64,000 nucleotides of DNA from Trissonchulus latispiculum (Eukaryota; Nematoda; Enoplea; Enoplida; Ironidae): assembly GCA_030248195.1 (NCBI GenBank), contig JASAND010007849.1, positions 23,414 through 87,413 on the forward strand, written 5' to 3'. Every line of letters starts with the position of its first letter. Positions within the stretch are counted from its first letter, which is position 1. The notes beneath the pieces were generated by a model. That model was not told the origin of the DNA and ran no database searches. It saw only the letters and a list, made by a program, of their open reading frames with translations. A program made the translations under genes and the position numbers. Of this stretch, positions 6,016 through 29,315 are shown one piece after another.

Positions 6016-6136
6016 TTTGATTAGTTTTTAGTTAGTTTTGACAATAGGCTTAGTTTTTCTGAGTTGGCTTGAGTTTGGCTTGAGTTGGGAGGGGGTTTCC
6101 TGGGTTGTGGAGTTGGGAGGAGGTTGTGGAGGAGAC

Positions 6137-6850: not shown

Positions 6851-6979
6851 ACCGTTAGTGAGCATTTCACAGTCCGTCTGGTACAATACCAGTGGGAGGC
6901 ACCAATAGTGTGAACCAGTGGTGAACCTTCGCCGTTACAAGCGGCAAACCAGTGGCAAGTTTACAGCCAATACAGGCGG

Positions 6980-7213
6980 ATGTCATTTATTGACAAAAAG
7001 CAGCAACAATACTATACAGTAAAAGAAGGTTCAGCAAAATATGGTACAACAACAACACTGTACAACAAAAATATGGTACGAATACTGGTCAAGAAAACAC
7101 TGCACAAAACAATGTACAGCAAAAGTGTGATACGACACGAATGCTGGTCAATAACACTGCGCAAAATAATGTGCAACAATACTGTAAAACTACTAGTCAT
7201 ATTATCTACTTGA
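6980..7213. repeat. Diverged short tandem repeat (about 57 bp)
   Basis: A phrase with GGTACGAATACTGGTCAA, AACACTGCACAAAA and AATGTACAGCAA at about 7072-7126 recurs in altered form at 7127-7182. A partial unit lies before it. Open frames in this stretch are by-products of the A-rich repeat. Confidence 0.5.
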
Positions 7214-8062: not shown

Positions 8063-8436
8063 GTGAGTACTTAAATTCTTAAATACTTAAATACATCCAG
8101 GCTCCCAAATAAAATATTCCAGTGAATTCGACGCTGATGTTTCTGATTCCTTGGTCTGATTCCAATATATTGGAAGCTTCAGCATCAAGCCAAAAGTTTT
8201 TGATTTGCGCCCGTATCGTGTTCCAATAAAGGGATAAAATGCTTTCGGATGTGCTGCACTCAGTCCTGGAACCTATGTGCGCCTTTCCCACCACGTTGAC
8301 GTTTCCAACGTAATTTCTATTAGGCAAAGTACTAGAATATAGTGTGTGTACACGCGCGCGTGTGTGTGTGCACGCGCGTGCGTGTGCGTGTGTGGTTCTA
8401 AAGCAATGCTTGAGCCCTGCTTGCAGCAACTCAAAA

Positions 8437-9810
<1,374 letters not shown>

Positions 9811-11106: not shown

Positions 11107-11122
11107 GCGGACCACATTGCAG

Positions 11123-11200
11123 AAATGTGGAGGGGGGGGGGGGCGGTGGGGGGGGTGGGTAGGGGGGGGGGGGGGTGCGGTGGGTGGGGGGTTGGGGGGT

Positions 11201-11243
<43 letters not shown>

Positions 11244-11593
11244 GTGGGGGGGGGGGGGGGGGGAGTTTTGGGGTGTGTATTTTTTTTTTTTTTGGGAGAG
11301 GATTTTTGTTATGTAGCAGGAAGGGGGGAAAAAAAAAAATTAAATTTGGGGGGGGGGCGGGGGGGCGGGGGTGTTTTTTTTTTTGGGGGGGGGGGGGGGG
11401 TTTTTTTTTTTTTTTTTTATGTTGTTGTTGTTTGGGTTTTTTTGTGGGTTTGATTATTTTTTTTTATTTTTTTGGGGGGGGGGGGGGGGTGGTGGTTTGG
11501 TGGTGTTTGGTTGTTTTTGTTGTTGTGGGGGCGGGGGGGGGGGGGGGGGTTGTGTTTTGGGTTGTTTTTGTTTTTTGGTGGTTGTTTTGGGGT
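11123..11593. repeat. G/T-only low-complexity block
   Basis: About 470 bp made almost only of long G runs and T runs, with very few A or C. It ends exactly at the LTR boundary at 11594. Glycine/phenylalanine-rich frames here are meaningless. It could be a real poly-G/T tract, but it looks like low-quality consensus sequence. Confidence 0.9.
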
Positions 11594-12147
11594 TGTGAAG
11601 TTTGACTCTACTGATCTTAGTAAAATGCTGTTGCCTGACTTTTATTCTCTAGGTTAGAACTCGATTACAGGTGAACAAACGTGGTGTGTGACGCTGGAGC
11701 AATGTTCGGTCCTGACCAACTAAAAATCGAGGAAAAGATTACAACGGTTTATTGTAAATTTAGGCAAATACTTGACGACGAAAATTAGAACAAAACATAA
11801 ATTTCAGTCACAAAACTATGAACTTGACAAAATACTAAACAACACAAAAATGCCCGGCAAAAGCCGGCTGAGCGACAGGATAAACTTGACCCAACCAACC
11901 AACTTAACAACCCCAAAGATTCGAACCCAAAATTCACACCCAACCACTCTTCATCAAAACTTACACCCACAACTAACTCTGACAAACAACCCAATATGGA
12001 GGATTACAATTATTAGCTATCCGAACCTACGAATTTAGACAAGAGTAATGCGAAATGATTGAACGTTCAACAAATGAAATGTTATTTTCACTTAGGCTTA
12101 GCAGCTCATGAATAATTTATATCTTTCCTGCCGGTGCTAACTTCACA
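11594..12147 (-). repeat. 3' LTR of the 17.7 kb element
   Basis: 554 bp, TG...CA with 9-bp inverted ends (TGTGAAGTT / AACTTCACA). It aligns along its full length with 28775-29315. Both copies share a GCCCGGCAAAAGCCGGC hairpin. Differences are substitutions plus many small indels. Confidence 0.95.
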
Positions 12148-15032: not shown

Positions 15033-18000
15033 TTAGGGCGGGACGATCCGACCGATCGCCGCCCGGTGGGCCCGCTGCCTCTCATTCCAAAGTTCTTCCA
15101 TTTCACGATTTAAATTTGGAAACAGCTCAGCGCGCAAGATCATCATAACTTTTCCCAACCAGTTGCGATTTTGCTGTTTATGCACGCGAATAACTTCACT
15201 AGTGATCTGATTTGGAGACAAATTGTCAATCTGCTTTTTAGACAAACCAATTCCCCAATACGGGTCACTGGTAGCTTCAACCAGCAGTCGGCAGCCAGAA
15301 TCGCGCAAAAAGTCAACAAAATCTGGGCAAGATTTGGCCTTAGCCCGCAGGACTTCAAGCATCACGAACGCGCGAACATGCATATCTTTGCCCTGCCACA
15401 ATTTACGAATAACTGAATCAGGTGGCAGCCAACCCAAAATTTGTTCAGCAGCGAATTTGCAATAAAACGGATTCAAATATTGCGCGCAAGCCTCAGCAGG
15501 GGCATGCCAGCAAGCAAAGAAGAAAAGTTTTCGAAATTGGTAAGCTTGCTCAGCTGTCTGAAAGTACAAACCCCACAATTCAACCCACCCGTTTGCACCC
15601 GGAACCTTTTTCGGTTCAAGACGAAACATATTAGACGCCGGGTCAAAAGCACCTTGAAAACGAGCAATCGGATGAAAATAAGGAAAGTTAGACGCGCGCA
15701 TCAAAACATGACCCAAACACTCATCAGTAACCTCCTTTGCCACCTGAACCATTGTCTTGGATCTTTCAGCCCAAACCCTAATCAAATCTGCCGACTGCTG
15801 GAAACGCGAAAGAGATGGATAAATATTCACAAATGGAAAAAATCGCGAAACCAGATCAGCTAACGCAGCAACTTTATAGGGCGCAAAACCAACAACTTGA
15901 AAAGACTCAAAAAGAATTTGATCATCGCGCAAAATAGCTGGAAATTTAATCGAAAGTTTCCAATATTCCGGTTCTTCCAATTGAATACGATAAGAAGGAT
16001 GAGACACCGGCTCTAATTTATCCCATGTAATAACAGGGCTTGCATCAGAGAAAAGAGTCTTAATAATGCCAAAATAATTTTCCATCGCAAAATCAGTCAA
16101 TGCAAATGGAGCATGTTTCAAATTTCTAAAGTAATTATCCCAATATCGAAAAGAAGTAGTAAAATATGGATTCAAAAGCGAGGGATCCGATTCTGAAGCA
16201 AAATCAGGCAAAGTCACAACTTGCCACTCAAATTCCGAATAAACCCGCAATGGAACTGCCCTTCGATCGTTCAAAATGGCGGACCACACTGCCTGATGGT
16301 AAGGTGGATCAATTTCCTGCGGACCCACATACTTAGGAGCCCCTAAAAGGGCACCATCATCGGTAGTGAGAGCAATCGATGGAGGTTTCATAGACCTGAT
16401 TTCCCGATCCAGAGAAAACCCACTACGATGCGTAACATGTGGCGGTGGATCCGCAGAGAAACGAGGGACCGCTTTTTCAACCAAGTAACGCGCCGAATAC
16501 TTGTACAAAACTTGCTTCGAATTTGCAGGATGGTCCCAAGGGGCCGCCAAACATTCAAACTGATTATTCAAACTCGCAAAAGATAGAAAATGTGACTCTG
16601 GCCACTGGATCGTGGGAGACGAAGGCAAAGTCGCCGAGTCTCGCAGAGAAAAAGTCTGTAAAGGGATGTCCAATTGCACAGGAGGCAAATGTTCATCTCT
16701 GTGCTGTGGAAAATCGCGTTTAGCGTACTTCGGATCAGTCGAAAGAGGTTGGGAGGCTTCCTGAGGCTCCGCAGATGCAGAAGTCCCAGGTTGTCCAGAT
16801 GTGGACGAAGCCTCGTCCGAGCTAAAACGCACCGTAGCACGTGAAGCCGGGACAGAAGAAGAACGAGAAGGGCGATTTGTGCCCGGGGTAGGAGCAAACA
16901 TAGGGTCGGGAGTCAATCCCAGACCAGCAGATGGGGTGCCGGCATGCGGGACGCCCCCTTGCTCCGGAAAAGTAGAACCTGGAAAAATAATTTGCAAAAG
17001 TTGAGTCAAAGAAAAATCAGCACGAGACATCAAAACATAAACAACTTCAATAGCGTCCCACGGAGCTGGATGACCAATCCAGACTGACAAAAGTTCCTTA
17101 GAAAAACCCAAGGAAGCAAGGAGCGCAAATTGGATATCTGTAGAAATTGGAGGCATGCGGTGCCAAAATGCATCAGAAAACGAAGTTCTAGCTGCAACGG
17201 GTAATGAGCCCAAACCTGGTGTGCGAAAATTTAAATGTGGCATATACCACTCAACTTGTGACTGAGCCGCCTGTTGTAAATTCGGCTGATTTTGCACGTT
17301 CCAGATAGGGACTGTAGGGGAAGGGGAGGGAGAGGTAGGGGCGGACTGGGAGGCGGGACGGGGAAGGGACATACGCAACGGACAACTCATACGCGGCTGA
17401 AAAATAGGTGTAGGCGCCGGCTGATTTCGTAAAAACTGAAAAGAGTCACTGAAAGTAGGAGGGCGCAACACCCCTGTTTGAGTAGAAATCACCGGTGAAG
17501 AAGTAGACGCAGGTAAATTTAAACGTGGCGGAGCCGGCCAAGCTCCGAGTGGAGCCGGAACCGGCTGCGGCGATGGCTCAACGGCCATTTGCCCCGCCAA
17601 AGAAAGAGAATCAGACACTAAATTTGCAGGTAGCAAAACTGAAGCATAACGCGGGGGCCCTTGTTCGGCCTGCACCGGCAGAACCAACTGAACACAGGGC
17701 TGATCTAAATTTACCACTGAAATAGAAGAATTTTCATTCGAATGAAACACTACATCATCCAAAGCAGCTGTCGAAACACTGGTAGTCGTCGGAAAAAGTT
17801 GATCGATAATTTCTTCCTGAGAAAGAGAGGTGGGAGGGGGAGGGGCAGGAGGGGCCGAGGAGTCCTCGGTCTCCATAGGGATAGCAACGGAAGGGGCCGG
17901 GGAAGGAATGGGGGTGGGGGGAATAATGTTAACAGTAGGAAGAGAAGAAAAGGTAGACGTTTGCGTCGAAAAAGGTTCAGTAAGCGGCTGAAAATTTTCA

Positions 18001-19136
18001 GGACCTAGACCCGGAGTGCTGCAGGCAGCACCCTCCTCGCCGACAACCGCAGCCGGCTCAGGTGGCGCCGAAGGCAAATCCCGCTCAATGCGGGACGGAG
18101 TCTCCGCACCAGAAGAGCCGACCTGCGATGGCTGAGCCAGCGACGAAGAAGGGCCTACGAACACCGCCGAATCAGAAGGAGACTGATTTTCTTCTGCATA
18201 AACAACGTGAAAGGCCGCTGCCGGCTGGTTTGACTGCTCAGAAAGGGGGGAGCGGGTAGCGGACGGGATAAGGGGACGGAGAGGGGTGGGGGGAAGGGAC
18301 GAGTCCCCAGCTGGAACTTCCTCCTGCGAGGGAGGACGAGACGACGACTCCCATTTTGGGGGAGGCGTTTCCAGTCTGGGCTCATTTTCTGCATCAGAAG
18401 AATTTGAAGAAACATCTAAAATTTCTGAGGGAAGACCCTCTGGCACCTCATGCTGCTCAGCAGCTTTTTCGTCCAATTTGCGCTGCTCGCGCTCCTTATC
18501 CGGTTTCGGAGTTTTCGGCGTGAAAGTATATTCCGGTTCTTCACCGGCCAACTCAATTTGTTGTGCACTCGGCACCAAAACCGGATTTGGACGATCCCCA
18601 ACCTTAGTAAACAAATCAGAATTTAGCTTGTCTTGATCAGGTAATAGTTCTAGAGGCGCAGATTTTGACAAAATTTTGACGTCAACCAATTTTTGTGAAT
18701 GACGCTTGTCGCCGTCAATATGCGCAATCAAAAGTTCAAACAAAGGTCGAAACACAGGTTCATCCATAATATGTGGAAGCGCCGAATTTTCAAGACGTTC
18801 CAAAGTATCTCGCTGCGAGACTTGACTCAAAGATTTTGTGCGCTGAAGTAGCTGAAAATGCTCAATACCAAAAGATGGGCACGAATGCAGCAAACGCTGG
18901 ACAACTAGAACTAAATCAAGCGCGTCTTTAAGAGCATAAGCAATTTCAGACGGTTTCAGAAAAGACATAAAACCATGCGCCGAAACGTTTTTGCACAAGC
19001 GCCCCGGGTATTTCAAAACATGTTGCTGGAGCCACCCCATAGAAAGGTTCTCATGCAGTTTAGGGGGGGGGAAGACAGCGCTGCTTATTTTCATCAAACC
19101 AGATATGAGGGCCCCGCTTTGGATGTTCAGGGTCAT
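15033..19136 (-). CDS. Retrotransposon ORF4: end of DEDDy exonuclease, disordered linker, C-terminal NADAR domain (1367 aa)
   Basis: Residues about 34-85 look like the last part of an RNase D/WRN-type 3'-5' exonuclease: GWLQQHVLKYPGRLCK, then a Y-x3-D motif (Y67, D71) in SEIAYALKDALDLVLV. Residues about 200-860 are Pro/Ser/Thr/Gln-rich and probably disordered. A globular region of unknown type follows (about 905-1170). Residues about 1171-1340 match NADAR (YbiA, DUF1768): AEQAYQFRK, FVMLEVLRAKAK, LLVEATSDPYWGIGLS and NWLGKVMMILRAEL, with the family's Glu, Trp-Gly and Asn/Leu-Gly signatures kept. NADAR proteins act on NAD/ADP-ribose-linked substrates; some remove ADP-ribose from DNA guanine. 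The ATG at 19136 lies inside ORF3, which overlaps by 77 bp, and is unlikely to be the natural start; ORF3 and ORF4 probably form one protein. Confidence 0.85.
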   Translation of the reverse strand: MTLNIQSGALISGLMKISSAVFPPPKLHENLSMGWLQQHVLKYPGRLCKNVSAHGFMSFLKPSEIAYALKDALDLVLVVQRLLHSCPSFGIEHFQLLQRTKSLSQVSQRDTLERLENSALPHIMDEPVFRPLFELLIAHIDGDKRHSQKLVDVKILSKSAPLELLPDQDKLNSDLFTKVGDRPNPVLVPSAQQIELAGEEPEYTFTPKTPKPDKEREQRKLDEKAAEQHEVPEGLPSEILDVSSNSSDAENEPRLETPPPKWESSSRPPSQEEVPAGDSSLPPTPLRPLIPSATRSPLSEQSNQPAAAFHVVYAEENQSPSDSAVFVGPSSSLAQPSQVGSSGAETPSRIERDLPSAPPEPAAVVGEEGAACSTPGLGPENFQPLTEPFSTQTSTFSSLPTVNIIPPTPIPSPAPSVAIPMETEDSSAPPAPPPPTSLSQEEIIDQLFPTTTSVSTAALDDVVFHSNENSSISVVNLDQPCVQLVLPVQAEQGPPRYASVLLPANLVSDSLSLAGQMAVEPSPQPVPAPLGAWPAPPRLNLPASTSSPVISTQTGVLRPPTFSDSFQFLRNQPAPTPIFQPRMSCPLRMSLPRPASQSAPTSPSPSPTVPIWNVQNQPNLQQAAQSQVEWYMPHLNFRTPGLGSLPVAARTSFSDAFWHRMPPISTDIQFALLASLGFSKELLSVWIGHPAPWDAIEVVYVLMSRADFSLTQLLQIIFPGSTFPEQGGVPHAGTPSAGLGLTPDPMFAPTPGTNRPSRSSSVPASRATVRFSSDEASSTSGQPGTSASAEPQEASQPLSTDPKYAKRDFPQHRDEHLPPVQLDIPLQTFSLRDSATLPSSPTIQWPESHFLSFASLNNQFECLAAPWDHPANSKQVLYKYSARYLVEKAVPRFSADPPPHVTHRSGFSLDREIRSMKPPSIALTTDDGALLGAPKYVGPQEIDPPYHQAVWSAILNDRRAVPLRVYSEFEWQVVTLPDFASESDPSLLNPYFTTSFRYWDNYFRNLKHAPFALTDFAMENYFGIIKTLFSDASPVITWDKLEPVSHPSYRIQLEEPEYWKLSIKFPAILRDDQILFESFQVVGFAPYKVAALADLVSRFFPFVNIYPSLSRFQQSADLIRVWAERSKTMVQVAKEVTDECLGHVLMRASNFPYFHPIARFQGAFDPASNMFRLEPKKVPGANGWVELWGLYFQTAEQAYQFRKLFFFACWHAPAEACAQYLNPFYCKFAAEQILGWLPPDSVIRKLWQGKDMHVRAFVMLEVLRAKAKSCPDFVDFLRDSGCRLLVEATSDPYWGIGLSKKQIDNLSPNQITSEVIRVHKQQNRNWLGKVMMILRAELFPNLNREMEELWNERQRAHRAAIGRIVPP
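15115..15626 (-). other. NADAR domain coding segment
   Basis: Located within ORF4 residues about 1171-1340. In order: FRLEPKK start, AEQAYQFRK (about 15535-15561), a helix with conserved V-M before the KAK segment, LLVEATSDPYWGIG, then the NWLGK closing helix. All family hallmarks that I can recall are present and the frame is intact, which argues for recent selection. Substrate specificity cannot be read from sequence. Confidence 0.85.
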
Positions 19137-19560
19137 TCTCCGGAGGGAGTCCCTTGAGGGCCATTCTGCGATAAGTGAAACGGTAAAAATGATTTATATC
19201 AACTAATGAATTTCTGGCATCAATGCCCAAATTTCCGAGAATCCGACGAGCATCGCACAGAGCGTTGACCACCAAAACTGGAAACGGAGTGTTATAGAGT
19301 AAAGGTTGCAACGCATAGCGTATCAATTTCCAGGAGGGAACTTGGAGGTAGATGACGTGAACCATCACCACCGTGAGTCTCAGACCGGAATCGAACCGGG
19401 ATTCTAAAGTCGGATTCAGAGGGTCAATTTCTTCACGAAAAGAGGTAATATCTGTAGGTACTGCGAACTGTAAAGTCGTCGCAGACTGACCCGTAGGGAT
19501 ATCCATCCAATTTTGAGAATGACCCTCAACATCCAAAACAAGAAACCCAGCTTCTTTCGC
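18882..19560 (-). other. DEDDy 3'-5' exonuclease domain split across ORF3 and ORF4
   Basis: Motif I is D214-x-E216 in ORF3 (FLVLDVEGHSQ). Motif II is around D307 (VVNALCDARRILGNLGI), followed by D325 in SLVDINHF, as in RNase D/WRN exonucleases. Motif III is Y67-x3-D71 in ORF4. The frame changes between motifs II and III at a run of nine C on the coding strand (about 19063-19071). Both sides are needed for a full domain, so a single indel or a programmed frameshift separates them. Confidence 0.7.
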
Positions 19561-20172
19561 CCAAAAGAACAAATTTTGTACCTCCCCCACAAGAGCTTCA
19601 ATTTCAGTTACAATACAAGTGGCCGTACGTAATTTTTCATCCAGGAAAGTCGCCTGGTGAATTTGATTCAGCCAGTCTTCCCTCCAGCGTCTGTCGGCAG
19701 CTGAAGCGAAATCAATTTTGGGAGGGGGTTTTTCTTCAAAAACAAGAGCTAAATCCCCTAACGAAATGGGGGGTAGCGGTTCTGTGTTAGACTTCCGCTT
19801 TTCCGACCGTTCCCGTTTCCGAGAGCGGCGCGAAGACGCCGATTTTTGTGGACGCTTCGACTTTTGAGATTTCTTAGAAGGGGACGGATCTGAAACTGAC
19901 TCAACGTCTACCAAAACATCTTCAGATGTATCTTTCTCTGAAGGTTGATAGCTCGCATCCGACTCCGAAGTACGAGACTTTTTGGTGCGCTGAGAGCGAC
20001 GCAAAGGAATCTGAGAACTAGGGGGGGCGCCCACTTCTGACAACTTTTTCCAGTCGCGGGACGCCCCTTTTTCCTGTAGAGTTTCTGCCAAGGGCTGTTC
20101 GGGACTGGACTCCCGTTCTGATGTTTCCGATTTATCCTGGTGCCTGCGTTTCCGAACCATTTTTGAAGCCAA
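19060..20172 (-). CDS. Retrotransposon ORF3: basic N-terminus and first part of DEDDy exonuclease (370 aa)
   Basis: ATG at 20172 opens a very basic, Ser-rich N-terminus with several nuclear-localisation-like clusters (KMVRKRR, RRSQRTKKSR, RRSRKRERSEKRK; residues 4-127). Residues about 205-335 carry exonuclease motifs I (D214, E216) and II (D307, D325). The frame then stops after a Pro-Pro-Pro coded by nine C. It lies 730 bp downstream of gag-pol, where retroviruses have env, but there is no signal peptide or membrane segment. It is probably translated from a spliced or internal message. It is likely the N-terminal part of the ORF4 protein. Confidence 0.75.
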   Translation of the reverse strand: MASKMVRKRRHQDKSETSERESSPEQPLAETLQEKGASRDWKKLSEVGAPPSSQIPLRRSQRTKKSRTSESDASYQPSEKDTSEDVLVDVESVSDPSPSKKSQKSKRPQKSASSRRSRKRERSEKRKSNTEPLPPISLGDLALVFEEKPPPKIDFASAADRRWREDWLNQIHQATFLDEKLRTATCIVTEIEALVGEVQNLFFWAKEAGFLVLDVEGHSQNWMDIPTGQSATTLQFAVPTDITSFREEIDPLNPTLESRFDSGLRLTVVMVHVIYLQVPSWKLIRYALQPLLYNTPFPVLVVNALCDARRILGNLGIDARNSLVDINHFYRFTYRRMALKGLPPENDPEHPKRGPHIWFDENKQRCLPPP

Positions 20173-20904
20173 CAGACACTGTGGGAGACTACCTGACCCT
20201 ACACTATGACAAAATCAAGAAAAATTACCACCTGATAGTTTTCCAGAACTGATCCAAAAACAAACCAAATCTGAGCAGGAACCTCGAAAGGCCTCCTGAC
20301 AGCTGAACCACACGGAGATCCACCACCAAAAGATAACCAAACCAGCTCTGAAACAAGAAATAGATATAGTGCACTACATGAAAGTGAAGAAAAACGCCAA
20401 ATTCATTACAGGAAACAAAAAGATTTAGAGAAAAACAGCTAAAGAAAACTAGAAACCAAAATATAAAGAAAATTTCAAGGAACGAGAAGCTCAAGGGTAC
20501 CAAAAGGTACGTATTCAAAAATTTCAAAAATCAGGATATCAAAAATTAGGAAAGTACGTATTGTACAATTTAAAGATTCAACGATATGGATTTGAAAGAA
20601 TGAGAAAAACCACAAAACTTATGAAATTTAATCTAAGAGAGAATACGTATATACGTATACAAGAAAATCTAAGAAAATCTATGAAAAGGAATTTTATTTA
20701 CCAAAACAGTAGAAACCAGGTTGGTGCCAAACAATATTACACACGAAAATATAAGCGCCTAAAATAGTAAGAACAAAACAAAGTTAAAAGCTAAAACAGA
20801 GAAAAGGATGAGATCACTCTAGAACAAAAAGCTATACAATGAACAAAAAGACATAGGTGAGGCATACAGACAAAATACAAAAGTACAAACAATACAATAT
20901 GAAA
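20173..20904 (-). other. Spacer between pol and ORF3 of the retrotransposon
   Basis: A-rich on the plus strand (T-rich on the element strand), no conserved frame. It may hold the splice acceptor or internal promoter for ORF3/ORF4. Several T-rich stretches followed by AG are present on the element strand, but none can be singled out. Confidence 0.5.
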
Positions 20905-23900
20905 CTAAGTAAGGAACGGCTTGAGACGATTTACGTGAATTTTCTCAGTAGGGGGGTCCGTTTTTGTAGTAGACTGAATTTCAACATTTGGAGGCGCAAG
21001 AACTTTGACCACCCGAAACGGGCCCTCGAAGACTGGCAGGTATTTGCGGCTTGCACCCTTTGGAATATTCGCCTTTGCAATATCTTTCCATACTAACATG
21101 CCTTCTTTATAGTCAACTTTCTTAACATTCGCATCATAGTCATCTTTGCGCTTTTTCAAGATTTTCTCCATATGCTCTTTCAATAAATCACGCGAAAAAC
21201 GCAAACGTTTACGCAGATCTTGTACGTAGGACGAGTTGAAGGGTCTAGTTGTTGGATCAGGCATTTTCAAAAAGTTTTCAGAAAACAAACGAGGATCACG
21301 TCCGTGTAAAAGATAATATGGAGACTCTCCGGTAGAGGCATGTGGGGCTGCCCGGTATACGAACAGCACCCAAGGGAGAAGGGTGTCCCACTCCCGCTCA
21401 AAAGCCAACATACATTTGCGTAACATGCCTTTAAGGGTGCCATTGAGTCTTTCGCAAGCACCATTCGACTGTGGGTGATAAGCAGTAGTACGTACTTTTC
21501 GTGTTCCCATAAGTTTACAAAGCTCATCCATAAGAGTAGAACAAAAAGGGGTGCCCCGATCAGTCAGAATTTCGCGAGGGGCCCCATGAACGGCGATAAT
21601 TTGTTCTGCCAAAAGTTTTGCAATAGTGTTGGTCTGTTCATTAGCCATAGCGAAGGCCCACCCCCAACGCGTCAGAAAATCGACCATCACTAAAACTTTA
21701 CAGTGACCCACGGAAGTAGTAGGAGCATGCATGACATCCATGCTGATCCTCTCGAATGGTGCCTCTACCGGAGTGAAAAATTTCATGTATGCCTGAGGCT
21801 TGCGAGGACCAGGGTTGCAAGCCGCACATACCTGGCAGCATTCGAGGAACCGTGTCACATCACGAGACATAGTTTCCCAGTAATATCTAGCGGCTATTAT
21901 TCCCATCATTTTAGCTCTCCCGACATGACAACCCCCCAAAAAATCATTATGACATTCCTTAAGGATATATTGACGACAATCATTAGGGACCACAATCAAA
22001 CGGATAGCATCAGGTAGGGGGACTCCCTTTTTGTCAGTTTGAAAACGGTATAGCATGTCATTTTCGTAAACGAATTTTGAAGCAGAACTACGTACGTACG
22101 AGGCCAGCTGTAAATCTTTCGGAAGTTTATCATTTTGCAAAAATTCAATCATAGCAGAAGTAAACGGATCAGCCTTAAGGGCCTCAGCCCAAATTTCCCT
22201 TGCCGCAAGCATCGGAACTGGGTGACCCGGACCATCATCAGGGCCTTCATCATCTAACAGTGCAAAAAGGTATTCTGGAATTTTCGGATATTCAGCAAAA
22301 ACCCCGGCAATGGCAGGCGGATTGCGAGACAATGCATCCGCTGCCCCGTTGACTGAACCAGGTTTTTGAATAACACGAAAACGAAACTGTTCTATGAAAG
22401 CACGCCAACGGGCCACCCTCCCTTCAGCCGTCTTAGGTTTTGCGGCATCGCCCAGGATATATTCCAAGGCCTGATGGTCCGTGATCACATCAAATTTATG
22501 TAAAATCAAGTAGTGTTGGAAATAGGAAATCCCAAAAAAGATAGCAAGAGCCTCCAATTCAGTAACAGTGTAGTTCTTTTCAGATGCATGGAGGGCTCTG
22601 GCCGCGTACGCAACTGGATGAAATTTTTCCTTTTCGTCTGCCTGCTGTAAAATGGCAGCTATACCCTGATAACTAGCGTCAGTAACAAGAGTAAAAGGTT
22701 TCGTAAAATTTGGATAAATCAAAACGGGTGCTGTAATTAATTTTTCCTTCAAAGTCTCAAAAGCAACTTGACAAGCAGAATCCCAAACAAATTCAGCACC
22801 TTTTTTCAGAAGACGAGTCAAAGGATTAGCAATTTTGGCAAAATGAGGGACAAAACGACGATAATAGCCCGCTAAACCCAAAAAACTTTGAATATCTTTG
22901 ACAGATTGAGGCACAGGAAATTGACGAACCACCCGAATTTTGTCAGGATCGGTAGCAATGCCAAATTCTGAAAGAATATGACCCAAAAAGGCCATTTGTT
23001 TACGTGCAAATTCGCATTTTGACAATTTTAGCAAAACATGCTCTTTTGCACAACGTTGAAAAATGTCAAGTAGACGCTGCAGGTGGTGATTCTGAGTCGG
23101 ACTAGTAACTAGAATATCATCAATATAAACAATAAACCCTTCCATAATACGATCAATTATCCGTTGGAAGGTACTGGGGGCGTTACACAACCCAAACGGC
23201 ATAACTTTGAATTCATACAACCCCGAATGAGTAATAAAAGCTGTTTTTTCCCGATCCGCCGGGTAGACAGGAATTTGATGAAACCCTGAGGCCAAATCCA
23301 ATTTCGAAAAAATGCAATGACCCAAAATAAGTTCAAAAAGCCCGTCAATTCGAGGAAGAGGGTAACAATCTTTCTTAGTAACCGAATTTAACTTGCGATA
23401 ATCAACACAAAGGCGCCAATCCCCATCTTTCTTTGCTACTAGAATAATCGGGGAGGCCCACGGAGACCGAGAGGGTTGTATAAGGCCCTGCTCCAACCAA
23501 GCGGACAATTTCTCGTCTATGATTTTCTTCTGTGCTGGGTTAACTTTGTAAGCCCGAGCACGAATAGGCCGTTTTCCTGGCTCAATTTCGATATAATGAT
23601 AGTCAATATCAGTTTTTCCAAAACCGCCTGTAGCGTCCCAAATATCAGGAAAATTTAAAATCATGAGTTTTAACCGCCGCTGATTTCGACGGGACAAACA
23701 ACAATCTTTCAAGCTAATTTTTCCGTTCAAAAGAGCACGTTTTGCTGCATCTGCAAAAAGGGCAGTTGCTACCGATTCAGCTGCAGTCAGAGGGTCAACC
23801 TCGACCTCTTCTTCAGGAGTACGTACAATATCCCCGTTCTGAGGGATACGTGAAAAGGCCTCATCAAAAGACAAATCAGTAGGATGATATTTTTCTGTGG

Positions 23901-26900
23901 TCACTCTATACGTACGGGGCTCGAACCCAGGTTCTCCCGGATGAATCTTGCGACGCAAAAATTTCCGAAACTTTTTAAGCGGAACAGAAGACACCTGATT
24001 GAGGTCCACGCCCTCACCCTGGGGTCCCTGACCAGCAGGGAGCTCAGGGGGAGGCTGAGACTCTGACGCCCAAGACTCTACAATATCGGAAAACGCTACT
24101 GGTACCGTTGGCCAAGAATCTTTCGTTTCCTGAGAAAAATCAACCAAATCGTCACCCGAAAACAAACATGACTGCAAAGTTTTTACCTCCCCGTCCAAAA
24201 TTTTGGGGGTGACCACCCCCTCTTTTAGAGGAGACTGAGGCTCAGGAGGGGCCGTAACCCCCTTGGCACACGAAGTCGCTTCCGGGATTTTTTCAGATTC
24301 ATCAAAAATTTCGTTCGGATATAGGGGATCCACCCCCTCTTTTAGTAGGAGGTCCCCTTGAGTAGAATCAACGTCACAATTAAGAACCAACGGGTCATCA
24401 AAAGGAGAATCAGACGAAAACCCAGTAAACGGAGAACAAATTTGCGGAGGAGGGGTCCCGAGGTCCTCATCAACTATAAACAACATGTCATCAGTATACG
24501 TATCGACATTAACCTGGGCCCTCGTAACCGCCAACGGTACCTCTAGGTTAGGGTCTGTGGCGAAATAGTCTTCAGCCGGGCTAATGGACCCCAACACAGT
24601 AGCCTTTGACAATTCAACCGGACAATTTGTGGGATTTGCAACCAAAAAATCAAAAATTGTTTCCCGAGGCACAACAATCCCCCCATAAGGCAAAACACGA
24701 TTTATATGTACAAAATCATCAAAAGGTTCGAACAAATGGGGAGTCTCGGTCAGTCTTGGGGAGACCCGGGCCTGAGCCCAGACCTCCGAGGAGGGAGGGA
24801 CCACCACGTCAACTGCCAAAACCACTGCCAAAACTGTAGAATCCCGGGTATTCCATTCAGCTCTCAATTGATCAGGGGTGAGCAAATCGTGGTTCATTGT
24901 ACCCATATAAACTTTATTCTGAGAAAGAATAATATCCCACGAAAAAGCTTTCATAAAGTCAGTACCTAGCAAAATGTCCCTGTAAAAATCGGGGGCTACG
25001 TGAAACTGCCACCCGAACTGAATTTGGCCAACTTTAAAAGGCAAAAATGCTTTCCCTGTTAATTTCAAATAATCGCTCCCTGGTGTACGTGCTTTGATTG
25101 GATCCGGGTAATTAACCACGATTTCTGCGCCCGCCCTGAGGAGACGTTCAAGGCCCCCCGTACTGATAATCGAAATGGACGCTCCCGTATCTACAATCGC
25201 AACCAATTTTTGACCGTTGACATCAATCAGAATTGCTGGGGTGTTCTCACCCGCTGCTAGAACAGACTCAAGGTCAATTTCTGGGACATCCCCCGGTTCT
25301 GCGAGAGCTGAATGGCCCATTAGGTCAGAAATTTGCACCACACAATGAGGACTTACCTGCGAGGCTGGTGTAGCCTCTGTTTCTGGAGGAAGAACTTCCT
25401 CGCCTTGGTCCTCCTGGACCCAATTTGTAGCCTCAGCTGGTGCAGGTTCTTGGACAGGTGGTTCGGACGGGGCAGTATAGGGGGAACCCGGGCCCGCCAA
25501 AATGGGAGAGCCCCCCGCACACCACGAGTCCGACGGCTCAGCTTCATTCATCCAAATATTATTTGAATCAAATTTATTTGGCCATAAACGAAGAAAAAGG
25601 TCAGTCATATCACCAATGTGCAGACGAATAGCATCAAAATACTTATTCATGAATTCATGAGTCTGACCATGAATAGCTGCCAATGTAGAAAAATTTCGAT
25701 GGAGCAACTGAAATTTTTGAGCCACTTGATGTTCTACAGAATCAGCATCAAAAGACAGATTTGCCCCCAAAACCTGTTCCGAAGTTTCCTCCGGCTGATT
25801 TGTGAGGCCTAAACGTTCATAATCGGGCTCAATCTGCAGCATATTAACCGAAAGTTGATTGACCATTTGATTTACCTGCTGAGCCGTCGGAGGTGGAGCA
25901 GTTTGGGGGTTTCTACCCCCTCTTTTAGGCTGGGCCCCGCCCCCTACCGGACCATGAGAAGATGGAACAAAATTTGCATTCAGACAGGGAGGACCGGAAG
26001 CTCTCGCCCCCGCCCCCCGGTAACGCGGCTGACCCGCTTGCAAAGGCACCCGCGGACGCGCCACAGAATCAGGAGCCGCCACACCTTGTGACTGCCACTG
26101 AGACTGCAACAGCGGCCGAGGCTGGCCCTGCGCAGCATGCTGCCACGGAGGCAGATACTGCTGAGGGGCCGCCGCATAACCCGGGGACTGAAGCGCCGGG
26201 TCATGCTGTGGATAGTATACCGGCTGAGGAGGCATCTGAGGGTAGGCCCCCACCATATCAACTTGCGCCTGAGTATTTTGATTATTCCTACCTTTATAAC
26301 CCGGAGGGGCTTTTGAAGGGTCCTTGTCCCAACAGCGATCCGGATGATGCCCCCGCTTGTTGCAGTGACGGCAAGGAGGAAAGCGTTTTTTCTTTTCTTC
26401 CTCCATTTCTTTGAGCTTATCCAAAAATTTTGTCTCAAACCAGTCCTTCATTTCCCGCAGCTCCAGCCTAGTCGCAGGAGTCGAATCAAGGGGGGCAGCC
26501 CCGTCCCTGGAGGAATTCTGGGCGCCAACATGAAAGACTGGGGCAGCAAAAGCTTGTTGATCTGCCAATCCAGGTTTTGAGATCCGAGATTCCAATTTGT
26601 CCAGGATACGTAGAATTTCGTCCAATTTGGGCTCACCTTTTCCGAAATTAGATGCCAAAGCCGTAGTATATTCCGAACGAATGCCATCAAAAAGTTGTTG
26701 TACGCAGTGCCTGTCCCGATCTGCCTGTGATGGCCAAATTTCCAAGGCTTGAGATTGCAGCTCCGACACGTACTGGCGGACGGTTTCCCCAGGCTGCTGG
26801 ACTCTTTGAGCAAAGCGATGGAATTTTTCCGAAACTGATTGTTGAGGCTTCGGGAACTGGGCGGACATCATACGTATGAATTCGTCTAATGACTCAACAA

Positions 26901-28605
26901 CCTTAGGACCAACCTTCGAAGCGAAAGTGAGAGCCTTACCAGACAGTTTGTTAAACATCAGACGGGCCCATTGGTCCCTTGGGATCCCTTGCACAGTAGC
27001 TGCTGAAACAAACTGTGGTAACCAATCTTCAAAATAATCAAAAGTCGGCTCAAAACGAGGAATATCATGTAAAATTGCCATATACGTACGGTACAATTGA
27101 GCATTATGGCGTCCAACAGAGGCATCTGTGGCTTGCATGGTGGCCGGAGTGGGATGAGGTCTCGACCGAGGACGAGCCCCCACTGAGTGGTCAGTGGCCA
27201 CCCGACAAACTGCCTGGTCGGTCTGTGCCGAATTTGGAGGCTGTTGGTCCGCCGGTTGTTGAGACGGAGGGGGAGTCTGCTGAGAAGCAGGCTCTGGCGG
27301 ATTCAAATAATAGCCATAATTCTGAGGTGTACCCGGCACAGGGTCCGGATACATCGGAGCCAATTGCGGCTGAGATTGCTGAGATTCAAAATATTGCTGT
27401 TGATTCAAATCAAAATACAAATTCGGATCATAATAGCCATACTGAGCATAGTAGTAGTAATTTGGATCATAATAACCATAGCCATCAGCCTGAGGGCCGC
27501 CCGCCTGATACGGCGGAGTCTGCTGTTGCTGAGGCTGCGATCCAGGCACTGCGTGAGAAGTAGATCCAGGATTAAACTGACCAGGTCCATTCTGTTGGGG
27601 AGGCGGCGTATTTGACTGAGCTGGAGGGGGGCCATTTTCCGGAGGAGGGGCCGAAGACTGCGGGATAGTATTTTCTGGCCGCGGATTCTGCTGAGACTGA
27701 TTGTGCGTAGAGATCATTGTCGTCTGTCCAGTGCCGTATGAATATTGGGACTGTGGAGAGACTGGAGCTCCCCCTCCATTCGACTCCGACTGGACATGGC
27801 CGGCCACTGAGACTGAAGGACCGGCGTGAGGGGCAGCAGGGGTCGAACCCCCCGCAAGCCCTCCTGACTCTGGTGGAAGCCCAAGGGAAGCACGCCGCTC
27901 CGCAACAAGCTGATCTGTTAATCTGTCGACCATCCCCTTGTAAAAATCTGAAATTTTTTCCAAACGTTTAGGATGTCCACGAGGGAGCTCACGAATTTCC
28001 GGGTCCCGCACGACAGCAGCCGCCGCCGCGAAAATTTCCTCCTCAGATGGTAGCACAGACTGACCCGGGGGAGCTGCCGAACCCCCCGTTGCCTCCGAAG
28101 GAGACGTAATAACAACACACACCTGTTCCAAATCCGCATCCGAAGTTGAATTTTCTCCCTGAATTTCTGGAGTGGGCGTCGGGGGAAGGGGGGGTTGGGA
28201 GGGATTTTGGGGGGTTCGCCCCCCATCCTGCACCATCTGACCGGGAGAAAGAATTGGAGGGCCAAAAGCTTTATTCAACATCTGAGAATATGACGGCCGT
28301 GGAATTTGCTGTGTATTAGAGGCCGAAGTTTGGGGCTGGGAAGAACCCCCCGCCTGGGTCCACTGGGGGGGTGGACCTCTACAACTGACCGGGACTTGAG
28401 CCATACAACATGGAATATTTTGATTTCGCCCAGAATTTTCCCCCCAAGTTTGCAAGGGAATCGTAGTGGGGATATAGGGGATCCCCCAATTTCGGTAGGG
28501 CGCTCCCCCCCCGAGTTCCAGGTGGAACCCCGTCTTGGAGGGGCGGATCAGTATATTCCCCAAGTTCACGCGGGTCCCCCCGATCCATAACTGGGGCCTG
28601 CTCAC
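20905..28605 (-). CDS. Gag-Pol polyprotein of the Ty3/Gypsy element (open for 2566 codons)
   Basis: Order along the open frame, by residue from its 5' end: Pro/Gln-rich gag (about 70-480), capsid-like helices (about 490-690), CCHC knuckle CRHCNKRGHHPDRC (about 741-754), aspartic protease AIVDTGASISII (about 1137), RT with RLCVDYRKLNSVTKK, FSKLDLASGFHQ and VYIDDILV (about 1825), RNase H (LVTDASYQGIAAIL, TELEALA, ITDHQALEYIL), integrase HHCC (about 2218-2262), catalytic D in MDVMHAP, D in LTDRGTPF and E in NGACERLNGTLK, and a GPF module (FEGPFRVVKV). All catalytic motifs are intact. The first ATG in this frame is at 28404 (residue 68). Translation may instead enter from the leader ORF by frameshift. 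An unusually long segment of about 500 residues separates protease and RT. Confidence 0.95.
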   Translation of the reverse strand: MSRPQLWIGGTRVNLGNILIRPSKTGFHLELGGGAPYRNWGIPYIPTTIPLQTWGENSGRNQNIPCCMAQVPVSCRGPPPQWTQAGGSSQPQTSASNTQQIPRPSYSQMLNKAFGPPILSPGQMVQDGGRTPQNPSQPPLPPTPTPEIQGENSTSDADLEQVCVVITSPSEATGGSAAPPGQSVLPSEEEIFAAAAAVVRDPEIRELPRGHPKRLEKISDFYKGMVDRLTDQLVAERRASLGLPPESGGLAGGSTPAAPHAGPSVSVAGHVQSESNGGGAPVSPQSQYSYGTGQTTMISTHNQSQQNPRPENTIPQSSAPPPENGPPPAQSNTPPPQQNGPGQFNPGSTSHAVPGSQPQQQQTPPYQAGGPQADGYGYYDPNYYYYAQYGYYDPNLYFDLNQQQYFESQQSQPQLAPMYPDPVPGTPQNYGYYLNPPEPASQQTPPPSQQPADQQPPNSAQTDQAVCRVATDHSVGARPRSRPHPTPATMQATDASVGRHNAQLYRTYMAILHDIPRFEPTFDYFEDWLPQFVSAATVQGIPRDQWARLMFNKLSGKALTFASKVGPKVVESLDEFIRMMSAQFPKPQQSVSEKFHRFAQRVQQPGETVRQYVSELQSQALEIWPSQADRDRHCVQQLFDGIRSEYTTALASNFGKGEPKLDEILRILDKLESRISKPGLADQQAFAAPVFHVGAQNSSRDGAAPLDSTPATRLELREMKDWFETKFLDKLKEMEEEKKKRFPPCRHCNKRGHHPDRCWDKDPSKAPPGYKGRNNQNTQAQVDMVGAYPQMPPQPVYYPQHDPALQSPGYAAAPQQYLPPWQHAAQGQPRPLLQSQWQSQGVAAPDSVARPRVPLQAGQPRYRGAGARASGPPCLNANFVPSSHGPVGGGAQPKRGGRNPQTAPPPTAQQVNQMVNQLSVNMLQIEPDYERLGLTNQPEETSEQVLGANLSFDADSVEHQVAQKFQLLHRNFSTLAAIHGQTHEFMNKYFDAIRLHIGDMTDLFLRLWPNKFDSNNIWMNEAEPSDSWCAGGSPILAGPGSPYTAPSEPPVQEPAPAEATNWVQEDQGEEVLPPETEATPASQVSPHCVVQISDLMGHSALAEPGDVPEIDLESVLAAGENTPAILIDVNGQKLVAIVDTGASISIISTGGLERLLRAGAEIVVNYPDPIKARTPGSDYLKLTGKAFLPFKVGQIQFGWQFHVAPDFYRDILLGTDFMKAFSWDIILSQNKVYMGTMNHDLLTPDQLRAEWNTRDSTVLAVVLAVDVVVPPSSEVWAQARVSPRLTETPHLFEPFDDFVHINRVLPYGGIVVPRETIFDFLVANPTNCPVELSKATVLGSISPAEDYFATDPNLEVPLAVTRAQVNVDTYTDDMLFIVDEDLGTPPPQICSPFTGFSSDSPFDDPLVLNCDVDSTQGDLLLKEGVDPLYPNEIFDESEKIPEATSCAKGVTAPPEPQSPLKEGVVTPKILDGEVKTLQSCLFSGDDLVDFSQETKDSWPTVPVAFSDIVESWASESQPPPELPAGQGPQGEGVDLNQVSSVPLKKFRKFLRRKIHPGEPGFEPRTYRVTTEKYHPTDLSFDEAFSRIPQNGDIVRTPEEEVEVDPLTAAESVATALFADAAKRALLNGKISLKDCCLSRRNQRRLKLMILNFPDIWDATGGFGKTDIDYHYIEIEPGKRPIRARAYKVNPAQKKIIDEKLSAWLEQGLIQPSRSPWASPIILVAKKDGDWRLCVDYRKLNSVTKKDCYPLPRIDGLFELILGHCIFSKLDLASGFHQIPVYPADREKTAFITHSGLYEFKVMPFGLCNAPSTFQRIIDRIMEGFIVYIDDILVTSPTQNHHLQRLLDIFQRCAKEHVLLKLSKCEFARKQMAFLGHILSEFGIATDPDKIRVVRQFPVPQSVKDIQSFLGLAGYYRRFVPHFAKIANPLTRLLKKGAEFVWDSACQVAFETLKEKLITAPVLIYPNFTKPFTLVTDASYQGIAAILQQADEKEKFHPVAYAARALHASEKNYTVTELEALAIFFGISYFQHYLILHKFDVITDHQALEYILGDAAKPKTAEGRVARWRAFIEQFRFRVIQKPGSVNGAADALSRNPPAIAGVFAEYPKIPEYLFALLDDEGPDDGPGHPVPMLAAREIWAEALKADPFTSAMIEFLQNDKLPKDLQLASYVRSSASKFVYENDMLYRFQTDKKGVPLPDAIRLIVVPNDCRQYILKECHNDFLGGCHVGRAKMMGIIAARYYWETMSRDVTRFLECCQVCAACNPGPRKPQAYMKFFTPVEAPFERISMDVMHAPTTSVGHCKVLVMVDFLTRWGWAFAMANEQTNTIAKLLAEQIIAVHGAPREILTDRGTPFCSTLMDELCKLMGTRKVRTTAYHPQSNGACERLNGTLKGMLRKCMLAFEREWDTLLPWVLFVYRAAPHASTGESPYYLLHGRDPRLFSENFLKMPDPTTRPFNSSYVQDLRKRLRFSRDLLKEHMEKILKKRKDDYDANVKKVDYKEGMLVWKDIAKANIPKGASRKYLPVFEGPFRVVKVLAPPNVEIQSTTKTDPPTEKIHVNRLKPFLT

Positions 28606-28750
28606 AACACCTCTGTCGCAAAACTAAATCGTTATACTCGTCCGGGTAATCTAAATTTTGTAAAAATTCAAAAAGCCGTTGAATATCTTGAAGTCGATCT
28701 TCTAAAGCACGAAAAAATTTAGGGTCAAGACCGTCACACTCCTCCAACAT
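28379..28750 (-). CDS. Leader ORF, probable N-terminus of Gag (123 aa)
   Basis: ATG at 28750 lies 11 bp after the primer binding site. The start MLEECDGLDPKFFRALEDRL is helical and charged, as in gag matrix regions. Its second half overlaps the gag-pol frame for about 220 bp. The two frames can be joined at a run of eight G on the coding strand (about 28511-28518). This suggests either one gag with a homopolymer indel or a frameshift site. It terminates at 28379 if no shift occurs. Confidence 0.6.
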   Translation of the reverse strand: MLEECDGLDPKFFRALEDRLQDIQRLFEFLQNLDYPDEYNDLVLRQRCCEQAPVMDRGDPRELGEYTDPPLQDGVPPGTRGGSALPKLGDPLYPHYDSLANLGGKFWAKSKYSMLYGSSPGQL

Positions 28751-28774: not shown

Positions 28775-29315
28775 TGTGAAGTTTGACTATACTGATCTTA
28801 GTAAAAATGCTGCTGTCTGACTTTTACTCTCTAGGATAAGACTAAACTACAGGTAACAACAGTGGTGTGTGACGCTGGAGCAATGTTCGGCCTGACCAAC
28901 TAGAAATCGATGAAATGATTACAACGGTTTATTGTAATTTAGGCAAGAACTTGACGACAAAATTAGACAAAACATAAATTTCAACACAAAATATAAACTT
29001 TGACAAAATACTAAAAAAAACACAAAAACGCCCGGCAAAAGCCGGCTGAGCGACAAAGGTAAATTTAAACAACCCCAAAACAAGCAACCCAAGAATTCGA
29101 CCCAAAGTTCGCAACCCAACCATTCATCAAACTTACACCCACACTACTTCTGACCAACCCAATATGGAGGACTACAACAATTAGCTATCCGATCCTACGA
29201 ATTTAGACAAGAGTAATGCGAAATGATTGAACGTTTGTCAAATGAAATGTCATTTTCACTTAGGCTTAGCAGCTCATGAATAATTTATATCTTTCCTGAC
29301 GGTGCTAACTTCACA
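28775..29315 (-). repeat. 5' LTR of the 17.7 kb element
   Basis: 541 bp, TGTGAAGTT...AACTTCACA. It pairs with the LTR at 11594-12147 but carries about a dozen small indels and many substitutions relative to it. The promoter of the element should lie here, on the minus strand. Confidence 0.95.

What the first reader, a model, noticed from the sequence alone, without database searches (positions are those of the whole stretch)
15033..20172. Ty3/Gypsy retrotransposon carrying a DEDDy exonuclease plus NADAR protein
Seen: two open frames totalling over 5 kb lie downstream of an intact gag-pol, between pol and the 3' LTR, on the same strand. The last 170 residues have NADAR hallmarks (AEQAYQFRK, LLVEATSDPYWGIGLS, NWLGK). 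The front part has RNase D/WRN-like motifs (D-x-E, D, Y-x3-D). Known: NADAR (YbiA/DUF1768) acts on NAD/ADP-ribose-linked compounds, and some members reverse guanine ADP-ribosylation. Inference: the element may use it to undo host ADP-ribosylation of its nucleic acids or proteins, with the exonuclease trimming or destroying host nucleic acid. I do not know of this combination in LTR elements and cannot check whether it is described.
Basis: partly seen in the sequence, partly recalled or inferred. Interest (0 to 1): 0.93.

Follow-up and report, generated by a model that had tools for sequence, protein, structure and literature searches.

The report
Retrotransposon with exonuclease–NADAR accessory gene
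A 17.7-kb jumping gene in an animal genome carries, after its usual genes, an extra protein that joins an exonuclease-like domain to a domain of a kind known to remove ADP-ribose tags from nucleic acid, which may let the element undo a host defence.

Summary
On the minus strand an LTR element (LTRs 28775-29315, 11594-12147) has a Ty3/Gypsy gag-pol and, between pol and the 3' LTR, an accessory gene at 15033-20172. Its end is a NADAR domain (Pfam 1.5e-10) of YbiA type with key residues kept; its front is a diverged DEDDy exonuclease domain, recognised through relatives. The two frames are one gene split in this copy: other copies have it in one frame of about 1,700 codons. The genome gives 153 scored matches in three main identity classes. 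Between close copies dN/dS is 0.04-0.13, so the gene is under purifying selection, though at greater distance weaker than pol. A second set of Gypsy elements there has the same exonuclease-NADAR order in a ~700-aa gene, and a Polinton-like element also carries NADAR. Each part has precedents in print (DEDDy ORF3 in bdelloid rotifer LTR elements; NADAR in Ectocarpus Gypsy Pol and oyster LINE ORF1); my searches found no report of the fusion. Function is inferred: removing ADP-ribose from the element's nucleic acid plus 3'-end trimming is my leading reading, RNA processing the main rival.

The parts
28775..29315 (-). 5' LTR, 541 bp, TGTGAAGTT...AACTTCACA
   Evidence: blastn of the two ends; 40 scored of 905 candidate LTR places in the genome
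28755..28772 (-). putative primer binding site, TGGCGACCGTGT..., two bases after the 5' LTR
   Evidence: read by eye from the sequence; tRNA not identified
28379..28750 (-). 123-codon frame before the long gag-pol frame, overlapping it
   Evidence: no Pfam match
20905..28605 (-). gag-pol frame, 2566 codons: sub-threshold Retrotrans_gag (0.059), protease, RT, RNase H, integrase in Ty3/Gypsy order
   Evidence: Pfam; 400-aa RT/RNase H region 95.5% and 83.8% identical to copies of classes B and C
20173..20904 (-). T-rich spacer with a possible splice acceptor (by eye); 17-mer at 20220-20236 shared with a class B copy
19060..20172 (-). front frame of the accessory gene (ATG at 20160): basic serine-rich N-terminus, exonuclease motifs I and II
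   Evidence: dN/dS 0.064 and 0.057 against two siblings
19519..19533 (-). exonuclease motif I, DVEGH (D-x-E)
   Evidence: D and E invariant in 6 rows
19237..19266 (-). exonuclease motif II (NALCDARRIL)
   Evidence: D invariant in 6 rows
15033..19136 (-). rear frame of the accessory gene, 1367 codons: motif III, proline-rich linker, middle region, NADAR
   Evidence: dN/dS 0.089 and 0.100 against two siblings
18912..18938 (-). exonuclease motif III (YALKDALDL, Y-x3-D)
   Evidence: Y in 6 of 6 rows, motif D in 5 of 6 rows
15123..15605 (-). NADAR domain (Pfam stretch, residues 1178-1338 of the rear frame)
   Evidence: 1.5e-10; 4.1e-12 as piece; residues
12153..12163 (-). polypurine tract AAAAGAGGGGG before the 3' LTR
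   Evidence: read by eye from the sequence
11594..12147 (-). 3' LTR, 554 bp
   Evidence: 11.0% substitutions against the 5' LTR

Best explanation
It is a Ty3/Gypsy LTR retrotransposon of about 17.7 kb whose third gene encodes one large protein: basic N-terminus, DEDDy-type 3'-5' exonuclease domain, long linker, C-terminal NADAR domain. Shown: the anatomy, its many copies, purifying selection on both domains, and the keeping of key NADAR residues. Inferred: the protein is made from a spliced mRNA as env would be, acts on the element's own RNA or cDNA, its NADAR domain hydrolyses ADP-ribose from bases (guanine by analogy with tested NADARs) put there by a host ADP-ribosyltransferase, and its exonuclease trims or clears 3' ends, so that reverse transcription or integration can go on.
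For: NADAR 1.5e-10 / 4.1e-12. In a 12-row alignment with E. coli YbiA, a phage NADAR and NADARs of other elements, E47, K54, W98, E138 and W145 are invariant; by motif and spacing I equate them with E43, K50, W89, E125 and W133, which are among the ADP-ribose contacts of the Phytophthora NADAR (passages of PMC11543638). Exonuclease: profile of siblings against the ~700-aa relatives E 3.1e-5 over 187 columns; L093 is over the PF01612 cut-off (1.4e-7 for the piece) and ends in NADAR (1.6e-34). 153 scored matches. dN/dS of one pair in each class 0.066, 0.070, 0.082; exonuclease 0.012-0.062, NADAR 0.043-0.052; window NADAR against 19 of 19 loci L030-L048 0.040-0.128. Codon usage of both frames matches gag-pol (r 0.88-0.89) better than two other window frames (0.54-0.71). 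NADARs of bacteria, phage and an oomycete act on ADP-ribosylated guanine (passages of PMC11543638 and PMC11125620), and NADARs of animal RNA viruses are proposed to counter host ADP-ribosylation (passages of PMC9503650).
Against: No activity was tested. The exonuclease of this family is recognised only through relatives: no library hit, and PDB hits of its profile are unrelated and above E 1. Between classes A and B, dN/dS of the gene (0.29 whole, 0.20 exonuclease, 0.15 NADAR; silent sites near saturation) is well above that of RT-integrase (0.046), so constraint is weaker than on pol. Class C has N instead of D at D142 and scores under the NADAR cut-off; one of its two rows lost the motif III aspartate, and relative L017 lacks the motif II aspartate and the motif III tyrosine. 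R79 and R93, also contacts in the Phytophthora enzyme, are not among the invariant columns. No host transferase acting on bases was looked for. Both AlphaFold models were too poor to use.
Confidence: 0.45

Rival explanations
1. RNA-processing factor: the protein works in the nucleus on the element's own transcripts (3'-end maturation, splicing or export), with NADAR as a binding or RNA-end-processing domain rather than a counter-defence.
For: Basic, serine-rich N-terminus. The nematode protein SNA-3, with three NADAR domains, is needed for SL1 trans-splicing (passages of PMC9303266). DEDDy ORF3s of rotifer elements are suggested to process 3' ends of element RNA (passages of PMC5408684).
Against: Key NADAR residues are invariant, which binding alone would not require; no RNA-binding family was found by Pfam.
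Confidence: 0.3
2. Small-molecule role: NADAR clears soluble ADP-ribose signals or reactive nucleotide-like intermediates, and the exonuclease acts independently.
For: NADARs are N-glycosidases in riboflavin metabolism (passages); TIGR02464 scores 42.5 bits on the window piece, below its cut-off of 73.7. A signal-clearing role is proposed for phage NADARs (passages of PMC9503650).
Against: The same domain order occurs in two sets of elements whose RT regions are about 48-50% identical, which suggests that the domains work together.
Confidence: 0.15
3. Inactive, structural domains (as in Maelstrom-like DEDD relatives) that mimic host piRNA factors or serve as scaffold.
For: Motif residues are lost in L017 and L054; inactive DEDD relatives in piRNA biogenesis are noted in PMC5408684 (passages).
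Against: Of 11 rows read residue by residue, 9 keep D-x-E, D and Y-x3-D (5 of 6; L020, L024, L026 of 4; L093); NADAR residues invariant.
Confidence: 0.1
4. Host gene caught by chance in one or a few copies, without use to the element.
For: None found; LTR elements do capture host sequence (established knowledge).
Against: 153 scored matches in three main identity classes; dN/dS 0.04-0.13 between close copies.
Confidence: 0.02

Closest known systems
NADAR-bearing Gypsy lineage of Ectocarpus (e.g. Gypsy-12_Ec32), PMC12477816 (passages read)
   Same: Gypsy-type LTR element carrying a conserved YbiA-family NADAR domain
   Different: [quoted passage not shown] here it is the C-terminal end of a separate gene after pol, fused to a DEDDy-type exonuclease, in an animal
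Bdelloid rotifer Juno and Vesta LTR retrotransposons with DEDDy ORF3, PMC5408684 (passages read)
   Same: RNase D-like DEDDy exonuclease gene downstream of pol, in the env position
   Different: No NADAR in the passages read; there DEDDy can share an ORF3 with a GDSL esterase. Sequence relation to the window family was not tested
Tx1 LINEs of Crassostrea gigas with NADAR in ORF1, PMC12477816 (passages read)
   Same: Animal retrotransposon with a YbiA-family NADAR domain
   Different: Non-LTR element, ORF1 position, no exonuclease mentioned in the passages
NADARs of invertebrate RNA viruses (nidoviruses, hepe-like viruses, picornaviruses), PMC9503650 (passages read)
   Same: NADAR carried by a parasite of invertebrates; proposed counter to host ADP-ribosylation
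   Different: RNA-virus polyproteins, no reverse transcription
~700-aa exonuclease-NADAR gene of other Gypsy elements of this genome (L017, L020, L024, L026, L093)
   Same: Same domain order, after integrase where pol was seen (L017, L018, L024, L026); exonuclease profiles match
   Different: NADAR in a separate tree clade, RT region 48-50% identical, a viral fusion glycoprotein domain inside gag-pol and kinase genes near by, neither found in the window's frames

Membership tests
Ty3/Gypsy (Metaviridae) LTR retrotransposon | Protease, RT, RNase H, then integrase in one pol | tested here: met
   Pfam stretches 1127-1219, 1724-1878, 1941-2074, 2206-2378 in order
Ty3/Gypsy (Metaviridae) LTR retrotransposon | Paired LTRs with TG...CA ends, PBS and PPT | tested here: met
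   LTRs; PBS and PPT by eye only
Ty3/Gypsy (Metaviridae) LTR retrotransposon | 4-6 bp target-site duplication | tested here: not met
   TAAGG against ACCCC; the 3' flank is a low-complexity stretch that may be an assembly fault
Ty3/Gypsy (Metaviridae) LTR retrotransposon | Clade placement by RT tree with named references | not tested
   Only elements of this genome were compared
Troyka LTR retrotransposon | 5'-CG...CG-3' termini (abstract of PMC12440569) | tested here: not met
   termini are TG...CA
NADAR (PF08719) | Profile score over curated cut-off 35.1 | tested here: met
   window 42 bits, 47.1 as piece; class B copy 46.8; class C copy 30.6, below it
NADAR, YbiA subfamily | Glutamate in the last strand (E125 of the Phytophthora enzyme), with E43, K50, W89, W133 | tested here: met
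   E138, E47, K54, W98, W145 in 12 of 12 rows; the correspondence is by motif and spacing, the Phytophthora sequence was not aligned
NADAR, YbiA subfamily | Guanine de-ADP-ribosylation activity | not testable with these tools
   needs an assay
Riboflavin-intermediate N-glycosidase (TIGR02464) | Equivalog score over 73.7 bits | tested here: not met
   42.5 bits
DEDDy exonuclease (PF01612 group) | D-x-E, D and Y-x3-D in order | tested here: met
   window: (across two frames); siblings: where L054 lacks the last D
DEDDy exonuclease (PF01612 group) | Direct profile score of the window family | tested here: not met
   no PF01612 hit at E up to 10
DEDDy exonuclease (PF01612 group) | Link through a relative over the cut-off | tested here: met
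   L093 31.9 bits, cut-off 23.6; profile match E 3.1e-5. With the earlier, smaller profile E was 0.0058 and 0 of 300 column shuffles reached its score (27.3 against a best of 25.8)
DEDDy exonuclease (PF01612 group) | RNase H-like fold | tested here: inconclusive
   AlphaFold model of the front piece, mean pLDDT 44.5
Errantivirus/retrovirus with env | Fusion glycoprotein gene | tested here: not met
   no glycoprotein family in the window frames scanned; the relatives L017, L024 and L026 have one

The most novel reading that the evidence does not exclude
In this animal, ADP-ribosylation of nucleic acid is a front line against mobile elements and NADAR is the shared counter-weapon: two sets of Gypsy elements (as exonuclease-NADAR fusions) and Polinton-like DNA elements carry it, which would be an arms race over base ADP-ribosylation in animals. 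(Selection was tested only for the window's family.)
Probability: 0.22. Interest if true: 0.95.

Novelty: new variant of a known kind. Interest (0 to 1): 0.78.

Why it matters
Reversible ADP-ribosylation of guanine is shown for a bacterial toxin-antitoxin system, and guanine de-ADP-ribosylation for eukaryotic NADARs (passages of PMC11543638); the physiological roles of NADARs across eukaryotes, animals included, are called unclear (passages of PMC11125620). A multicopy retrotransposon gene under purifying selection that fuses NADAR to an exonuclease, with NADAR also in other mobile elements of the same genome, gives a concrete and testable lead to an animal pathway that modifies mobile-element nucleic acid.

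Tried and rejected
Direct family scans of the exonuclease part (Pfam, NCBIfam, PHROGs, PDB sequences) gave nothing useful; support came only through relatives. The first profile comparisons with the window pieces were weak (E 0.13 and 0.038). Single-sequence AlphaFold models of the NADAR and exonuclease pieces were too poor for a fold search (mean pLDDT 39.6 and 44.5), so none was made. Viral-contig scans with the window's NADAR, exonuclease and pol pieces found no relative; with a four-row NADAR alignment five distant loci came; three phage records match NADAR weakly. A host gene caught in one copy was rejected. LTR age as a clock was rejected: the window's LTRs differ by 11.0% and those of another ~17.7-kb copy by 13.8%, within the range between different copies (1.5-19.0%), while deleted or clustered copies have LTRs 0.0-1.1% apart; since the window's frames show low dN/dS, assembly joining of copies or recombination fits better than age. 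A common origin of the two exonuclease-NADAR sets could not be decided. Troyka was considered and dropped on its termini.
Full report
What is there. On the minus strand, LTRs at 28775-29315 and 11594-12147 bound a 17.7-kb element. Both begin TGTGAAGTT and end AAACTTCACA. By eye, a primer binding site follows the 5' LTR and a purine tract precedes the 3' LTR. The long frame 20905-28605 has protease, RT, RNase H and integrase in Ty3/Gypsy order. No target-site duplication was seen; the 3' LTR abuts a stretch of C and A runs (11117-11593) that looks like an assembly fault.

The accessory gene. Two minus-strand frames, 19060-20172 and 15033-19136, overlap at a homopolymer run. Pfam finds NADAR at the end of the second (1.5e-10; 4.1e-12 for the piece; phrog_1017 3.2e-14). 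Motifs of a DEDDy exonuclease lie across both: D-x-E and D in the first, Y-x3-D in the second. That, and the siblings, show one gene split in this copy.

Siblings. The genome (733.8 Mb, 21,732 contigs) gives 153 matches to the window's NADAR piece from 150 scored of 1,320 first-look candidates (counts are lower bounds). The first 46 rows, the window included, are 77-100% identical (class A). A block lies mostly at 57-60% (B) and another at 40-41% (C); some rows fall between. The classes are my labels by identity. Of the 153 rows, 18 stand in open frames of 1,614-1,727 codons (3 in A, 10 in B, 5 in C), with the gene in one frame; six were fetched. RT-region identity to the window is 95.5% for a B copy and 83.8% for a C copy, against NADAR identities of 60% and 40%: the accessory gene evolves faster than RT.

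Selection (NG86). One pair per class, chosen for open frames, gives dN/dS of 0.066, 0.070 and 0.082 for the whole gene; exonuclease 0.012, 0.062, 0.045; NADAR 0.043, 0.052, 0.049; linker 0.089, 0.111, 0.131. Window pieces against two siblings give 0.057-0.100, and window NADAR against all 19 of the loci L030-L048 gives 0.040-0.128. Between classes silent sites are near saturation: A against B gives 0.29 for the whole gene, 0.20 exonuclease, 0.15 NADAR, against 0.046 for RT-integrase. So the gene is under purifying selection, weaker than on pol. Codon usage of both frames agrees with gag-pol (r 0.88-0.89) better than with two other window frames (0.54-0.71).

The exonuclease call. No library finds it directly in this family. 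In other Gypsy elements of the genome a ~700-aa gene ends in a strong NADAR (3.3e-36 to 2.7e-41 in 4 of 4 complete frames scanned). PF01612 hits its front in L020 (1.5e-4, 22.1 bits, just under the cut-off of 23.6) and weakly in the partial L023 (0.083), not in L017, L024 or L026. A genome-wide PF01612 search gave 13 matches, 8 of them at 4.3e-6 to 5.7e-5 in frames of 597-753 codons; the one of these fetched, L093, is over the cut-off (1.4e-7 for the piece) and ends in NADAR (1.6e-34). The profile of the window family aligns with that of these relatives over 187 columns through all three motifs (E 3.1e-5; with the smaller profile E 0.0058 and a score above 300 of 300 column shuffles; the larger profile was not shuffled). 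Profile searches of PDB sequences gave no support: none, three unrelated hits at 1.2-1.5, NrnC, a DEDDy enzyme by recall, at 1.4, and a MerR regulator at 0.27 ahead of NrnC at 1.2. Motif losses: L017 lacks the motif II aspartate and the motif III tyrosine, L054 the motif III aspartate. I take the domain as a diverged DEDDy exonuclease, at about 0.85.

The NADAR call. E47, K54, W98, E138 and W145 are invariant in 12 rows. By motif and spacing they correspond to E43, K50, W89, E125 and W133, among the ADP-ribose contacts of the Phytophthora NADAR in the passages of PMC11543638; the glutamate marks the YbiA subfamily. Its other listed contacts, R79 and R93, are not invariant here, and D142 (likely D130) is D in A and B and N in both C rows. 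Tree of 36 of the 68 extracted NADARs: the window family forms its own clade on a long branch (2.13 changes per column; 100/100), apart from a nine-row clade with the ~700-aa type (96/96) and a six-row clade with the Polinton-like type (97/90). NADAR either entered elements several times or diverged very far; the tree does not decide.

How it may work. Leading reading (0.45): the protein reverses ADP-ribosylation on bases of the element's RNA or cDNA and trims 3' ends. Tested NADARs reverse guanine ADP-ribosylation (passages of PMC11543638 and PMC11125620). Main rival (0.3): processing or export of the element's RNA in the nucleus, as NADARs in nematode SNA-3 suggest (passages of PMC9303266). 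Expression from a spliced message is inferred only from position, a polypyrimidine-AG stretch in the spacer seen by eye and a 17-base stretch shared with a B copy.

Prior work. [quoted passage not shown] PMC5408684 reports DEDDy ORF3s in bdelloid rotifer LTR elements and in Penelope-like elements. Searches that could have shown the fusion, as listings: NADAR with retrotransposon (104 papers, 20 listed), NADAR/YbiA/DUF1768 (12,354 papers, 20 listed), Gypsy with NADAR domain (one, the Ectocarpus paper), accessory ORF with exonuclease and Gypsy (one), LTR elements with additional ORFs (13, 12 listed), DEDDy with NADAR (one irrelevant paper), NADAR with Polinton (none), Gypsy with fusion glycoprotein or kinase (6, 5 listed). 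Only open-licence PubMed Central text was searched; the founding NADAR paper (de Souza and Aravind, recalled) was not seen and may mention retroelements.

Limits. 

Changed on checking against the calls: the claim that selection is as strong as on pol was withdrawn, and PDB hits and motif losses against the reading were added.

Noticed in passing
L017 (frame 3-7103), L024 (1-7575), L026 (1-6327), L018 (2130-3497): Gypsy elements of the same genome carry a viral fusion glycoprotein domain (PF24664 Monjiviricetes_fusion; 6.5e-10, 2.4e-6, 6.3e-8, 2.3e-9; L024 is just under the cut-off) inside the gag-pol frame or region, before the protease.
   Followed up: partly
L020 6376-7485, L026 6532-7650, L019 618-1796, L021 698-1852, L025 2641-4026: Protein kinase genes (PF00069, 1.8e-15 to 5.7e-26) lie up- or downstream of the ~700-aa exonuclease-NADAR gene in these elements.
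   Followed up: partly
L012, L028 (G000 contig C803): Polinton-like element: packaging-ATPase-like gene (Pox_A32 3.5e-7), integrase with chromodomain (2e-9, 1.3e-11), 166-aa NADAR (7.7e-44) and a TATA-binding protein gene (9.7e-37).
   Followed up: partly
whole genome G000: NADAR is very abundant: 150 scored of 2,478 first-look candidates, the 150 listed all over the cut-off, in several frame sizes; most contexts were not seen.
   Followed up: partly
window 28775-29315 and 11594-12147; contig C8755: LTR pairs of two ~17.7-kb copies differ by 11.0% and 13.8%, while LTRs of deleted or clustered copies are 0.0-1.1% apart: assembly joins or recombination.
   Followed up: partly
window 20220-20236: 17-base stretch ATCAGGTGGTAATTTTT upstream of the accessory gene is shared with a class B copy in an otherwise diverged spacer; splice or other signal unknown.
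   Followed up: no
window 13180-14112: G+C-rich, A-poor (minus strand) stretch between the accessory gene and the 3' LTR, with frames on both strands that base composition may explain.
   Followed up: no
window 208-6015: By reading the frames (no profile search), a second, decayed Gypsy-like element on the minus strand with broken frames.
   Followed up: no
window 11117-11593 and 8344-9161: Low-complexity runs; the first lies directly against the 3' LTR and may be a sequencing or assembly fault.
   Followed up: no
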